Shown one piece after another: positions 47,569 to 50,373 of a stretch of DNA of 64,000 nt. The position numbers and the translations under genes were made by a program. The number at the start of each line of letters is the position of its first letter. Position 1 is the first letter of the stretch. Origin of the DNA: an uncultured Prevotellaceae bacterium (GTDB lineage Bacteria; Bacteroidota; Bacteroidia; Bacteroidales; Bacteroidaceae); contig CAMJKP010000003.1 in NCBI GenBank assembly GCA_946406435.1, positions 27,568 to 91,567 on the forward strand, in the 5' to 3' direction. The notes under the pieces are model-generated. The model did no database searches, was not told the DNA's origin, and was given only the letters and a program-made list of their open reading frames with translations.

Positions 47569-47599
47569 ATGAAAACTTGGCTATACGCAATTAAAATGC
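47569..47599 (+). repeat. 31-nt direct repeat, left copy (overlaps 3' end of Nudix gene)
   Basis: ATGAAAACTTGGCTATACGCAATTAAAATGC, 29/31 to 50995-51025. Confidence 0.85.
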
Positions 47600-48268
47600 A
47601 CTTCTGTTTTCTATCTGTTCACGATACTTGTTTTCATCAAACGTGAAAAGAGTTCCGGGGCGACCATTATTACGGACTTGCTGATTTGTAGGTATAATAT
47701 AGCCAAGTGCCATCATCTTCTTGTGGAAATTACGGCGGTCGAATGTCTGCCCAAGTACGACTTCATAGATTGTCTGCAACTGGGTCATGGTAAATGTCTT
47801 GTTCAGAAGACGGAAAGCCAAAGGCTCGTATGTGATTTTCCAACGTAGCTTCTCTAATGCCACACGAATAATCTCCTTATGATCAAAAGCGAGTTCTGGC
47901 AGTTCAGACACAGGAAACCATTGTGCCTTTGCTGCATCATCACCAGCTATAACCTCGTATTTCTCCTGACGAACAAATGCCAGAAAAGCGATAGTCATCA
48001 CTCTTTCACGAGGATCACGATTAACTCCCGTGAATGCCTGAAGCTGCTCTATGTAGATGTCCTTTACTCCCGTTTCTTCCTGAAGCTCGCGCAAAGCACC
48101 TTGTTCGGCTGTTTCATCCATATTCATGAAACCACCAGGCAAAGCCCATGCTCCCTTAAAAGGATCTATTCCCCTTTCAATCAAAAGGAGGTTGAGGGCA
48201 TTTCCGTCAAAACCAAATACTACACAGTCGGTAGTAACCGCAGGATGTGGATATTTGTATGTGTACAT
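47591..48268 (-). CDS. Nudix hydrolase-domain transcriptional regulator, NrtR/AraR-like (Nudix + C-terminal winged helix)
   Basis: Intact Nudix box GFMNMDETAEQGALRELQEETGV; C-terminal FTMTQLQTIYEVVLGQTFDRRNFHKKMMALGYIIPTNQQVRNNGRPGTLFTF winged-helix pattern. Confidence 0.88.
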   Translation of the reverse strand: MYTYKYPHPAVTTDCVVFGFDGNALNLLLIERGIDPFKGAWALPGGFMNMDETAEQGALRELQEETGVKDIYIEQLQAFTGVNRDPRERVMTIAFLAFVRQEKYEVIAGDDAAKAQWFPVSELPELAFDHKEIIRVALEKLRWKITYEPLAFRLLNKTFTMTQLQTIYEVVLGQTFDRRNFHKKMMALGYIIPTNQQVRNNGRPGTLFTFDENKYREQIENRSAF

Positions 48269-48309
48269 TACAAATTACGTGATTGGCTTTAGTTTCCTAA
48301 TCACGCTGC

Positions 48310-48317
48310 AAAATTAC
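48310..48317 (-). promoter_or_regulatory. -7 element TAATTTTG for Nudix regulator gene (minus strand)
   Basis: CAAAATTA on plus strand with CAA at 48337-48339 (19-bp spacing). Confidence 0.5.
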
Positions 48318-48345
48318 TACTTTTTTCCCGAAAAACAACACAAAT

Positions 48346-48362
48346 GCGTAGTTTTTACGCAA
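48346..48362. promoter_or_regulatory. Candidate operator site 1
   Basis: TGCGTA-GTTTT-TACGCA, perfect 6-5-6 inverted repeat. Confidence 0.6.
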
Positions 48363-48388
48363 TCAAATGTTAAAAAAATAGCAAGTTT

Positions 48389-48405
48389 GTGTATTTTTCA
48401 CGCAA
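48389..48405. promoter_or_regulatory. Candidate operator site 2
   Basis: TGTGTA-TTTTT-CACGCA, same 6-5-6 architecture. Confidence 0.5.
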
Positions 48406-48433
48406 TTTATTTGGCGGATTCATGAGAAATTAT

Positions 48434-48441
48434 TACTTTTG
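48434..48441 (+). promoter_or_regulatory. -7 element TACTTTTG for the vWA gene
   Basis: TAnnTTTG match about 60 nt upstream of ATG 48501. Confidence 0.55.
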
Positions 48442-48456
48442 CGTCAGAATTACACA
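48440..48456. promoter_or_regulatory. Candidate operator site 3, overlapping -7 element and predicted start of transcription
   Basis: TGCGTC-AGAAT-TACACA, fits TGYGT-N7-ACRCA. Confidence 0.5.
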
Positions 48457-48500
48457 AACGAAGTTTTTAACCTCTTAAGCAAAAGGAAAGGAATAAGGAA

Positions 48501-49526
48501 ATGAAGAAGACTACAGTACACAATCTCATCATCGTTGATGCATCAGGCTCTATGGGCAGCATCTATGATCAGGCACTCGCAGGAATCAACGAGACCATCA
48601 AGACTATTAAGAATGTTCGCAACAGCAACTCTGATGTGAACCAGTATCTTACCCTCCTATCCTTTGCAAATGGAGGTGAGGAGTTACAATATGTTTACAA
48701 GCACGAAAACATAGAGAACGTGTCTCTCGTTACAAAGCGAGACTATCAGCTAAGAGGCTTAACAGCTCTTTATGATGCTATTGGCGAGTCTGTTTCTAAG
48801 TTACGAAAGCACGTCGGAGGGGAGGACAAGGCTCTTGTGACTATCATCACAGACGGCTACGAGAATGACTCTTGCAAATGGAGCGGAGCACAGGTAAAGC
48901 AACTAATTGACGAGCTTCGCAATAATGGTTGGGTATTCACATTTATCGGAGCAAATCAGGATGTAGAGGAAGAGGCAAGAAAGATGGGCGTTGTCAACAG
49001 CATGAAGTTTGAGGCCACAATTGAGGGGACTATCCAGATGTTCGAGCGTGAAGGGCATTATCGCCAGCGTTGGAATGAGCGAGTAAGTCGTGGTGAAAAG
49101 AATCTCGAAGAGGGCTATTTCATGGATGAGGAAGGAGAAATGCCGTCAGAACGTATCACTCCTGACCGTATAGACTACTTAGCACCAAACGAGATCTTCG
49201 TTTTCGGTAGCAACAAGGAAGGTCATCATAATGGCGGAGCTGCAAGGGCTGCCCTCATGCGATTTGGCGCTAATTATGGACAAGGCATGGGCATTCAGGG
49301 ACAAAGCTACGCGATTCCTACTACTGGTTCTATTCATCTTATGAAAAGAGCTATATACGAGTTCTTAGAATATGCACGACAGCATCCCGATAAGCGTTTC
49401 CTTGTTACGGCTATCGGTTGTGGAAATGCGGGGTATGAACCAGGATATGTTGCGTGTCTTTTCCACGATGCAGTAGATGTTCAGAACATCTGTCTGCCAA
49501 GGATTTTCTGGAAATATATTGCGTAA
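48501..49526 (+). CDS. vWA domain protein fused to a macro-like domain
   Basis: MIDAS motif DASGSMGS near the N-terminus; C-terminal NEIFVFGSNKEGHHNGGAARAALMRFGANYGQGMGIQGQSYAIPTTG...FLVTAIGCGNAGYEPG resembles macro-domain motifs. Confidence 0.8.
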   Translation: MKKTTVHNLIIVDASGSMGSIYDQALAGINETIKTIKNVRNSNSDVNQYLTLLSFANGGEELQYVYKHENIENVSLVTKRDYQLRGLTALYDAIGESVSKLRKHVGGEDKALVTIITDGYENDSCKWSGAQVKQLIDELRNNGWVFTFIGANQDVEEEARKMGVVNSMKFEATIEGTIQMFEREGHYRQRWNERVSRGEKNLEEGYFMDEEGEMPSERITPDRIDYLAPNEIFVFGSNKEGHHNGGAARAALMRFGANYGQGMGIQGQSYAIPTTGSIHLMKRAIYEFLEYARQHPDKRFLVTAIGCGNAGYEPGYVACLFHDAVDVQNICLPRIFWKYIA

Positions 49527-49581
49527 TCGTAAGGCAATATCGCAATCTCAAACACGTTTAATAATAAAAAACATCAGGACT

Positions 49582-50373
49582 ATGAAGAATCTACTTTTAG
49601 CAGCAGCAATAGGCGATATTAGTGGCGTTCCCTACGAGTTCAAGGGACGTACCAAGGACTATGACGCTATAGACCTCCTTAATCCTAAAAATAAATATTC
49701 CGACGATACAATCTGTACTTTCGCCTGTGCAGAAGCTCTTATCGAGGGCAAGGATATGGCGGAATGCCTTCATCGTCGTGGTCGTGAGGACTTTTATCGA
49801 GGATTCGGAGGACGGTTTGCAAAATGGCTTATGAGTCCGGAGATTAAGCCTTCGTATGGAAGTTTCGGTAATGGTAGTGGAATGAGGGCATCTTCAGCAG
49901 GATTTCTTGCAAAGACAAAGGAAGAGTGTATAGAACTTGCAACTCAAACGGCACTTCCTACGCATGACCATCCTGAGGGTATCAAGGGAGCTGTAGCAAC
50001 GGCACTTGCAATCTTCTATGCCCACCAAGGCAAGGACAAGGACTTCATCCGCAAGAATGTTCTTGACAAATACTATCCAGATTGGAGCAATAAGACCTAC
50101 GCTGAGATCAAGCCTGATTTCCACTTCAACGAAACCTGTCAACTCACAATACCACCAGCAATTATCTGCTTCTTGGAGAGTAAGGATTTCGTGGATTGTC
50201 TGAAACTTGCAATCTCCCTTGGCGGTGATGCCGATACTTTGGCTGCAATAGCAGGACCCATGGCTTACGCATATTACAAGTTTATGCCAGAGGAGCTTAT
50301 CGCAAATGCCAAAGCCAAGCTCCCCAAGTGGATGCTTGAGCTGAATGACAGGTTTGATAAGGCTTGCCAGTAA
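49582..50373 (+). CDS. ADP-ribosylglycohydrolase family protein
   Basis: AAAIGDISGVPYEF, KYSDDTICTFACAEAL, SLGGDADTLAAIAGPMAYAYY; metal-binding Asp motifs intact; start refined to ATG 49582. Confidence 0.92.
   Translation: MKNLLLAAAIGDISGVPYEFKGRTKDYDAIDLLNPKNKYSDDTICTFACAEALIEGKDMAECLHRRGREDFYRGFGGRFAKWLMSPEIKPSYGSFGNGSGMRASSAGFLAKTKEECIELATQTALPTHDHPEGIKGAVATALAIFYAHQGKDKDFIRKNVLDKYYPDWSNKTYAEIKPDFHFNETCQLTIPPAIICFLESKDFVDCLKLAISLGGDADTLAAIAGPMAYAYYKFMPEELIANAKAKLPKWMLELNDRFDKACQ

What the first reader, a model, noticed from the sequence alone, without database searches (positions are those of the whole stretch)
47591..50373. Compact ADP-ribose-type locus: Nudix regulator divergent from a vWA + macro-like fusion and an ADP-ribosylglycohydrolase
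Seen: three adjacent genes. The Nudix regulator keeps an intact Nudix box (GFMNMDETAEQGALRELQEETGV) plus a C-terminal winged-helix-like region. The middle protein has a vWA MIDAS (DASGSMGS) and a C-terminal region with macro-like motifs (GGAARAAL, GQSYAIPTTG, VTAIGCGNAGY). The third has the metal-binding Asp motifs of ADP-ribosylglycohydrolases (DDT, GGDADT). Established: NrtR-family proteins are Nudix-related regulators linked to NAD or sugar metabolism, macro domains and ARH enzymes recognise or hydrolyse ADP-ribose linkages, and vWA domains mediate protein assembly. Inference: this is a self-regulated ADP-ribose sensing or de-ADP-ribosylation module in which the vWA protein recruits targets. 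No ADP-ribosyltransferase is visible in the window, so the substrate may be a phage or toxin modification, or a free NAD derivative.
Basis: partly seen in the sequence, partly recalled or inferred. Interest (0 to 1): 0.85.

Follow-up and report, generated by a model that had tools for sequence, protein, structure and literature searches.

The report
Self-controlled ADP-ribose removal gene cluster
A gut-type bacterium (Prevotella-like) carries a compact, self-controlled set of three genes that probably senses ADP-ribose and strips ADP-ribose tags off cell components; the set recurs across related bacteria with its own DNA switch, and is an untested variant of a system already predicted to resist viral tagging enzymes.

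Summary
The Nudix gene is an NrtR/AraR-type repressor with an intact Nudix box. [quoted passage not shown] A confident model of that domain matches macro domains (best hit TARG1). The third gene is an ARH with both metal-site motifs. In Bacteroidales the fused vWA-A1S_2505 gene has an NrtR within 3 kb in 41 of 56 loci, and both NrtR and ARH in 15.

New here is the switch. A palindrome, TGYGT-N7-ACRCA, occurs three times in the 64-kb window, all in the divergent promoter, and one copy overlaps the -7 box. Of 84 matches in 80 relatives' loci (1.06 Mb), 64 lie directly upstream of these genes; no other spacer length is enriched. The catalytic RELxEE residues are kept in nearly all 53 regulators, although they are lost in NrtR and AraR, so the sensor may destroy its own inducer.

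The general idea is not new. Iyer et al. 2022 (PMC9503650) predicted ARH-centred systems with Nudix repressors and vWA chaperones against phage ADP-ribosyltransferases. This is a Bacteroidales variant with a macro-like fusion. Substrate, inducer and anti-phage role are untested.

The parts
47591..48268 (-). nrtR-like gene: Nudix sensor domain with intact Nudix box + NrtR/AraR winged-helix DNA-binding domain
   Evidence: Pfam NUDIX, NrtR_WHD, AraR_C; nearest solved structures BtAraR 5bs6 3.6e-48 and SoNrtR 3gz5 1.3e-31
48309..48316 (-). predicted -7 box of the nrtR promoter, TAATTTTG (with TTG 19 nt upstream at 48336-48338)
   Evidence: match to the Bacteroidetes TAnnTTTG consensus; the consensus is from background knowledge
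48345..48361 (.). operator O1 TGCGTAGTTTTTACGCA, next to the nrtR promoter
   Evidence: identical in the sister genome
48388..48404 (.). operator O2 TGTGTATTTTTCACGCA, just upstream of the vWA-gene -33 box
   Evidence: in the sister genome the site differs (TGCGTAAATGTTACGCA) but still fits the consensus
48410..48441 (+). predicted promoter of the vWA-macro/ARH operon: TTTG-N20-TACTTTTG
   Evidence: conserved in the sister genome
48440..48456 (.). operator O3 TGCGTCAGAATTACACA, overlapping the end of the -7 box (48434-48441)
   Evidence: a TAnnTTTG box touches 33 of 77 operators in relatives' upstream regions, against 5.8% of random positions there
48501..49526 (+). vWA + A1S_2505 (macro-like) fusion protein, 341 aa
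48537..48560 (+). MIDAS DxSxS motif (DASGSMGS) of the vWA domain
   Evidence: D13, S15, S17, T88, D118 invariant in 32 homologues
49140..49523 (+). A1S_2505 macro-like domain (residues 214-341)
   Evidence: NF049995 2e-36; AlphaFold2 model pLDDT 92; Foldseek to macro domains
49582..50373 (+). ADP-ribosylglycohydrolase (ARH/ARG), 263 aa, 55 bp after the vWA gene
   Evidence: PF03747 7.3e-33; ARH3-like structures
49699..49710 (+). ARH metal-site motif SDDT (residues 40-43)
   Evidence: D41, D42 invariant in 21 ARHs
50221..50238 (+). ARH metal-site motif GGDADT (residues 214-219)
   Evidence: D216, D218, T219 invariant in 21 ARHs

Best explanation
A stand-alone, inducible ADP-ribose-processing module. 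The Nudix/wHTH protein (NrtR family) sits on three palindromic operators in the divergent promoter; O3 overlaps the -7 box of the vWA-macro/ARH operon and O1 flanks nrtR's own promoter, so it represses both. When ADP-ribose (or a close derivative) rises, because something has ADP-ribosylated cell components or cleaved NAD, it binds the Nudix domain and releases the repressor. The operon then supplies an ARH that hydrolyses ADP-ribose linkages and a vWA-macro protein that binds ADP-ribosylated proteins: the vWA through its MIDAS, the macro-like domain through, or acting on, the ADP-ribose. Because the Nudix box is intact, the repressor may also hydrolyse the inducer and reset the switch. Shown by sequence: domain identities, intact motifs, linkage, operators, macro-like fold. 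Inferred: ligand, repression, enzyme activities, target binding. The transferase is probably outside the locus (phage or rival bacterium).
For: Domain calls and macro fold, with weak independent profile hits to the macro-type structures 2fg1/2afc, Pfam Macro in 3 members and TIGR02452. Linkage: NrtR within 3 kb of the fusion in 41/56 loci, NrtR+ARH in 15. Natural fusions of A1S_2505 to ARH (L050), microbial PARG (L028) and DUF1810 (L096), and a reversed-order A1S-vWA ORF at G059:C4. Operator TGYGT-N7-ACRCA: 64 of 84 matches in 2.8% of the sequence, spacer 7 only; overlaps the -7 box; in the own genome three of six matches are this cluster, against 11 for the control pattern; also ahead of the ARH-Nudix operon on Prevotella plasmid pE2-28. 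Catalytic Nudix residues kept in nearly all 53 regulators, whereas NrtR and AraR lose them and the genome's own second NrtR homologue is degenerate. No DarT or KptA found in the own assembly.
Against: No ligand, activity or phage phenotype is known. ARH is absent near many fused loci (NrtR+ARH in 15 of 56), so ARH is optional. The catalytic residues of known macro hydrolases cannot be placed; invariant polar residues (S24, H30, Y57, C94 of the domain) are not a known catalytic set, so it may be a reader only. Foldseek E-values are modest (best 0.008). The genome is 81% complete, so absence of a transferase is weak.
Confidence: 0.55

Rival explanations
1. Protection against ADP-ribosylating toxins injected by competing bacteria rather than by phage: ARH acts as a broad immunity enzyme, as Tri1 does, induced by released ADP-ribose.
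For: The ARH has a weak match to the Tri1 ADP-ribosylarginine hydrolase model (2.8e-6, far below its cut-off). The family lives in dense gut and rumen communities (record titles). The locus is patchy within the genus.
Against: Nothing in the locus points to secretion systems. Macro-like and vWA parts are not part of known Tri1 immunity (own knowledge).
Confidence: 0.2
2. House-keeping NAD/ADP-ribose salvage: an NrtR-type regulon that clears free ADP-ribose and its derivatives from NAD turnover, with no conflict role.
For: Characterised NrtR proteins respond to ADP-ribose and control NAD genes (PMC4666351, PMC12735969). An intact Nudix box would give ADP-ribose pyrophosphatase activity.
Against: No NAD-biosynthesis gene occurs in the recurrent neighbourhoods. 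The operator regulon in the own genome appears limited to this locus. Distribution is patchy in the genus, with full fused hits in about six genomes of about 70, and an expanded version sits on a plasmid; all unlike core metabolism.
Confidence: 0.13
3. The macro-like domain is a sensor or sequesterer of a nucleotide immune signal (ADP-ribose derivative or cyclic ADP-ribose) instead of a processor of tagged macromolecules.
For: In several relatives the same domain is fused to a sigma-region-4-like HTH and transcribed divergently from a stand-alone vWA gene. One plasmid fusion is annotated SLOG. The domain occurs as a ~130-aa protein in hundreds of phage records, as expected for a counter-signal sponge.
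Against: Direct fusion of the same domain to ARH and to a microbial PARG domain favours action on ADP-ribose adducts. No signal-producing enzyme is coupled to the locus.
Confidence: 0.12

Closest known systems
ARG-centred host systems predicted by Iyer, Burroughs, Anantharaman and Aravind 2022 (PMC9503650, section 3.8)
   Same: ARH without a coupled transferase; Nudix one-component repressor; vWA predicted chaperone; occasional macro domain; proposed induction by ADP-ribose
   Different: Those were described in actinobacteria, planctomycetes and proteobacteria, mostly with a phosphatase. Here: Bacteroidales, no phosphatase in the window locus, vWA fused to an A1S_2505 macro-like domain, a defined operator, DUF1810/DUF6717 as other recurrent partners
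NrtR family (SoNrtR, SsNrtR) and its Bacteroidetes branches AraR/XylR
   Same: Nudix domain + winged helix, local repressor architecture, dimeric palindromic operators
   Different: Catalytic Nudix residues intact; genomic context is ARH/macro/vWA, not NAD or pentose genes
TARG1/ALC1-like macro domains and microbial PARG (TIGR02452 / PF10021)
   Same: Predicted fold; the VTxIGCGxAG segment aligns weakly with TIGR02452
   Different: Shorter (~110-125 aa), about 10% identical to TARG1, different conserved residues; no Pfam family; NCBIfam names it only 'phage non-structural protein'
ADP-ribosylglycohydrolases ARH3, DraG, Tri1 (PF03747)
   Same: Fold family and both metal-site motifs
   Different: Not assignable to any one of these equivalogs (all below cut-off)

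Membership tests
ARG-centred counter-ADP-ribosylation systems (PMC9503650) | ARH/ARG gene at the core | tested here: met
   PF03747 7.3e-33 with invariant metal-site residues
ARG-centred counter-ADP-ribosylation systems (PMC9503650) | no ADP-ribosyltransferase or sirtuin coupled | tested here: inconclusive
   none noted among ORFs near the locus, though neighbours were not all domain-scanned; no DarT or KptA in the 81%-complete own assembly; other transferase families and sirtuins not searched
ARG-centred counter-ADP-ribosylation systems (PMC9503650) | Nudix or WYL one-component repressor | tested here: met
   NrtR-type gene adjacent; linked in 41/56 loci
ARG-centred counter-ADP-ribosylation systems (PMC9503650) | associated phosphatase (about 55% of systems) or peptide-binding chaperone such as vWA | tested here: met
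   vWA met; no phosphatase among the adjacent genes of the window
ARG-centred counter-ADP-ribosylation systems (PMC9503650) | reverses viral ADP-ribosylation of host molecules | not testable with these tools
   prediction in the paper; no experiment found in the library
NrtR transcriptional regulators | Nudix-like domain + NrtR winged helix | tested here: met
   Pfam and PDB matches; below the NCBIfam NtrR equivalog cut-off (160.6 vs 400 bits)
NrtR transcriptional regulators | palindromic operators at target promoters | tested here: met
   TGYGT-N7-ACRCA, P 1.7e-81 treating matches as independent
NrtR transcriptional regulators | impaired Nudix signature (usual, not universal) | tested here: not met
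   catalytic Nudix residues kept in nearly all of 53 locus regulators, against impaired in NrtR/AraR
NrtR transcriptional regulators | ADP-ribose or related ligand releases DNA | not testable with these tools
   needs EMSA
AraR/XylR branch | degenerate Nudix box and pentose-utilisation neighbours | tested here: not met
   intact box; neighbours are ARH, vWA and macro genes
Macro domain superfamily | macro fold | tested here: met
   pLDDT 92 model; nearly all best PDB matches are macro domains
Macro domain superfamily | significant sequence match to Macro/PARG profiles | tested here: inconclusive
   Pfam Macro in 3 of 55 members at best 0.028; TIGR02452 best 0.0024, below cut-off
Macro domain superfamily | ADP-ribose binding or hydrolysis | not testable with these tools
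   needs ITC or enzymology
ADP-ribosylglycohydrolase (PF03747) | paired Asp metal-site motifs | tested here: met
   D41, D42, D216, D218 and T219 invariant in 21 sequences

The most novel reading that the evidence does not exclude
The A1S_2505 domain is an unrecognised macro-type ADP-ribose domain family shared by hundreds of phages and by a Bacteroidales-wide host module. The host module is an inducible de-ADP-ribosylation defence whose Nudix repressor is also an active ADP-ribose pyrophosphatase, so the switch destroys its own inducer and resets itself.
Probability: 0.3. Interest if true: 0.72.

Novelty: new variant of a known kind. Interest (0 to 1): 0.52.

Why it matters
How bacteria undo ADP-ribosylation inflicted by phages or rivals is predicted but, as far as the library shows, untested. 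This locus offers a small case in Bacteroidales with a defined operator, a clear repressor and two candidate erasers or readers, so the 2022 prediction can be tested by simple reporter, EMSA and hydrolase assays. It also gives a fold to a domain that is widespread in phage genomes but annotated only as hypothetical or 'non-structural', and it raises a testable idea: a catalytically competent Nudix repressor that removes its own signal.

Tried and rejected
Structure search with the full 341-aa model returned only vWA matches because the vWA dominates; the domain had to be folded alone. Two viral-contig scans with alignment A1 gave no answer; a scan with A2 worked. Mobile-element origin: 46-bp and 37-bp direct repeats bracket the locus, but in the sister genome the 46-bp repeat is not found and the 37-bp one is found only near fba, and upstream of fba in other species shows no recognisable empty site, so insertion by these repeats is not concluded. 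A phage-borne three-gene module was looked for and not found: of 80 viral loci, nearly all carry A1S_2505 but only one carries the fusion with NrtR (L174, at a contig end, possibly host flank), and none has ARH. Defence-database membership: PADLOC gives only weak generic hits. A crAss-like phage 'DNA helicase' polyprotein with an A1S-like segment was scanned for a transferase domain and none was found in the part scanned. A wider own-genome regulon was sought with the operator and not seen above background.
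Full report
What is there. The window is part of a Prevotella-like genome (kinship; related record titles). Between 47.5 and 50.4 kb lie a Nudix/winged-helix gene on the minus strand and, diverging from it, a vWA-containing gene and an ADP-ribosylglycohydrolase (ARH) gene. 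The ARH most likely starts at ATG 49582, since the longer mechanical ORF overlaps the vWA stop. The 55-bp gap suggests one transcript.

The C-terminal domain of the vWA protein. It belongs to NCBIfam NF049995, 'A1S_2505 family phage non-structural protein', and has no Pfam family of its own. Folded alone with 54 relatives it gives a confident model (pLDDT 92.4, pTM 0.89). The best PDB matches are nearly all macro domains: TARG1 with ADP-ribose (E 0.008, probability 1.0, TM 0.65), PARP14, PARP15, BT1257, PARP9, Poa1 and Af1521. A few of the listed matches are designed hydrolases; at least one carries a name (2bfq) that points to a macro scaffold. A profile search independently touches BT1257 (2fg1) and 2afc, though only at E about 0.3. 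Three members touch Pfam Macro (0.028 at best), and eight touch TIGR02452, a PARG-like family (0.0024). The motifs VFVFGSNxxGxHxGGAAxxA and VTxIGCGxAG sit where macro domains have their first and second ligand loops; this placement is my reading of the pattern, not a computed superposition. The fold call is therefore good, while ADP-ribose binding or catalysis is not shown.

Linkage. In 56 loci from other species that encode the fused vWA-A1S_2505 protein, an NrtR-like gene lies within 3 kb in 41, an ARH in 16, and both in 15. Beyond 3 kb only one NrtR hit occurs in 421 kb. DUF6717 genes recur (8 loci), and DUF1810 genes occur in some. A1S_2505 is fused to ARH in L050, to a microbial PARG catalytic domain in L028 and to DUF1810 in L096. 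In L055 and L072 a DUF6717-like stretch belongs to the fusion itself. A reversed-order A1S-vWA reading frame exists at G059:C4. In several Prevotella relatives the parts are split: a stand-alone vWA gene diverges from a protein joining a sigma-region-4-like HTH to A1S_2505. Prevotella sp. E2-28 carries on plasmid pE2-28 a long run of sigma factor, ARH, Nudix, DUF6717, two DUF1810, two radical SAM, A1S_2505, LRR, DUF1810 and DUF6717 genes.

The switch. The pattern TGYGT-N7-ACRCA occurs exactly three times in 64 kb, at 48345, 48388 and 48440, all between the divergent genes. Among 80 public loci (1.06 Mb), 64 of 84 matches fall in the 2.8% of sequence directly upstream of the nrtR or fused vWA genes. 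The neighbouring spacer lengths and the everted or direct arrangements give 0 to 3. The P-value of 1.7e-81 treats matches as independent, which related loci are not, so it is an overstatement; the contrast between spacer 7 and all other spacers is the safer argument. The pattern was first read off the window and its sister, then counted in the other loci. In the sister genome the three sites are kept, and at site 2 the sequence differs while still fitting the consensus. O3 overlaps the end of a TAnnTTTG -7 box that has TTTG 20 nt upstream, and a similar box on the other strand precedes nrtR. In relatives such a box touches 33 of 77 operators, against 5.8% of random positions in the same regions. 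The plasmid pE2-28 copy also has the site, TGCGTATTTTTTACGCA, upstream of its operon. In the own genome only six matches exist, three of them here, while the reversed control pattern gives 11, so no wider regulon is visible.

The repressor keeps its Nudix box. Of 53 regulators gathered by similarity to the window protein, all keep R, 51 keep the first E and 52 keep each of the last two acidic positions of RELxEE (one has D); the clear exception, L054, looks like AraR and lies far from its locus. Chang et al. 2015 state that this signature is impaired in NrtR regulators of NAD metabolism and in AraR (PMC4666351). A 2025 paper reports the same for streptococcal NrtR and notes that NuhA, with an intact motif, is an active ADP-ribose pyrophosphatase (PMC12735969). 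The second NrtR homologue in the own genome has a degenerate box. I infer, without proof, that this branch may hydrolyse its own inducer.

Distribution. In one search, about six of some 70 same-genus genomes carry a full-length fused protein; most carry only the separate domains or nothing. The sister genome G071 has the locus at the same place, upstream of fba (87% nucleotide identity), while ten other relatives with fba at 80-88% nucleotide identity have no similar sequence upstream of it. This patchiness suggests a dispensable, exchanged module.

Phages. A1S_2505 alone is common in phages: 428 of 50,697 records match the domain, mostly unnamed, and the viral scan returned mainly proteins of about 130 aa without NrtR or ARH. 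The structural library of viral proteins gives close matches in crAss-like phages, one in a protein named 'ART-PolyVal-like'. That name hints that a Bacteroidales phage joins a transferase to this domain, but I did not verify it; a scan of a different crAss-like protein found only helicase domains.

What was already known. Iyer et al. 2022 predicted ARG-centred host systems with Nudix or WYL repressors, phosphatases and chaperones including vWA, sometimes with macro domains, to counter viral ADP-ribosylation, induced by released ADP-ribose. Their text names actinobacteria, planctomycetes and proteobacteria; I could not see their figures, so I cannot exclude that they counted A1S_2505 as Macro or included Bacteroidetes there. 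I found no experimental follow-up in the library.

Verdict. Real, conserved, and best filed as a new variant of the predicted ARG-centred systems. The parts that look new are the operator, the conserved catalytic Nudix box in a repressor, the macro-like assignment of A1S_2505, and the vWA-macro fusion with its alternative architectures. Function remains inferred.

Noticed in passing
47397-47442 and 50464-50509: 46-bp direct repeats (98% identical) flank the locus; this sequence has only these two copies in the whole own assembly.
   Followed up: partly
47563-47599 and 50989-51025: A second flanking pair of 37-bp direct repeats (89%); the left copy overlaps the end of nrtR, the right copy lies upstream of fba; only these two copies in the own genome. 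In the sister genome only the copy near fba was found at the threshold used.
   Followed up: partly
L173 (Prevotella sp. E2-28 plasmid pE2-28, 2689-14882): Expanded plasmid-borne version: sigma factor, ARH, Nudix, DUF6717, DUF1810 x2, two radical SAM enzymes, A1S_2505, LRR, DUF1810, DUF6717, TPR, with the same operator upstream.
   Followed up: partly
L012, L017, L020, L022, L023, L029: A1S_2505 fused behind a sigma-region-4-like HTH domain, divergent from a stand-alone vWA gene; possibly a macro-type one-component regulator.
   Followed up: no
L028:25-1878: 617-aa protein joining A1S_2505 to a microbial PARG catalytic domain (PF10021), next to an nrtR-like gene.
   Followed up: no
public phage records: A1S_2505 is widespread in large phages under hypothetical names; one crAss-like phage protein with this fold is named 'ART-PolyVal-like', suggesting a transferase and a macro-type domain in one phage protein. 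Not verified.
   Followed up: partly
window 42150-47577 against sister locus L113: The sister genome lacks the roughly 5.4-kb stretch (sigma factor and lipoprotein-like genes) that separates the hybrid histidine kinase from nrtR in the window.
   Followed up: no
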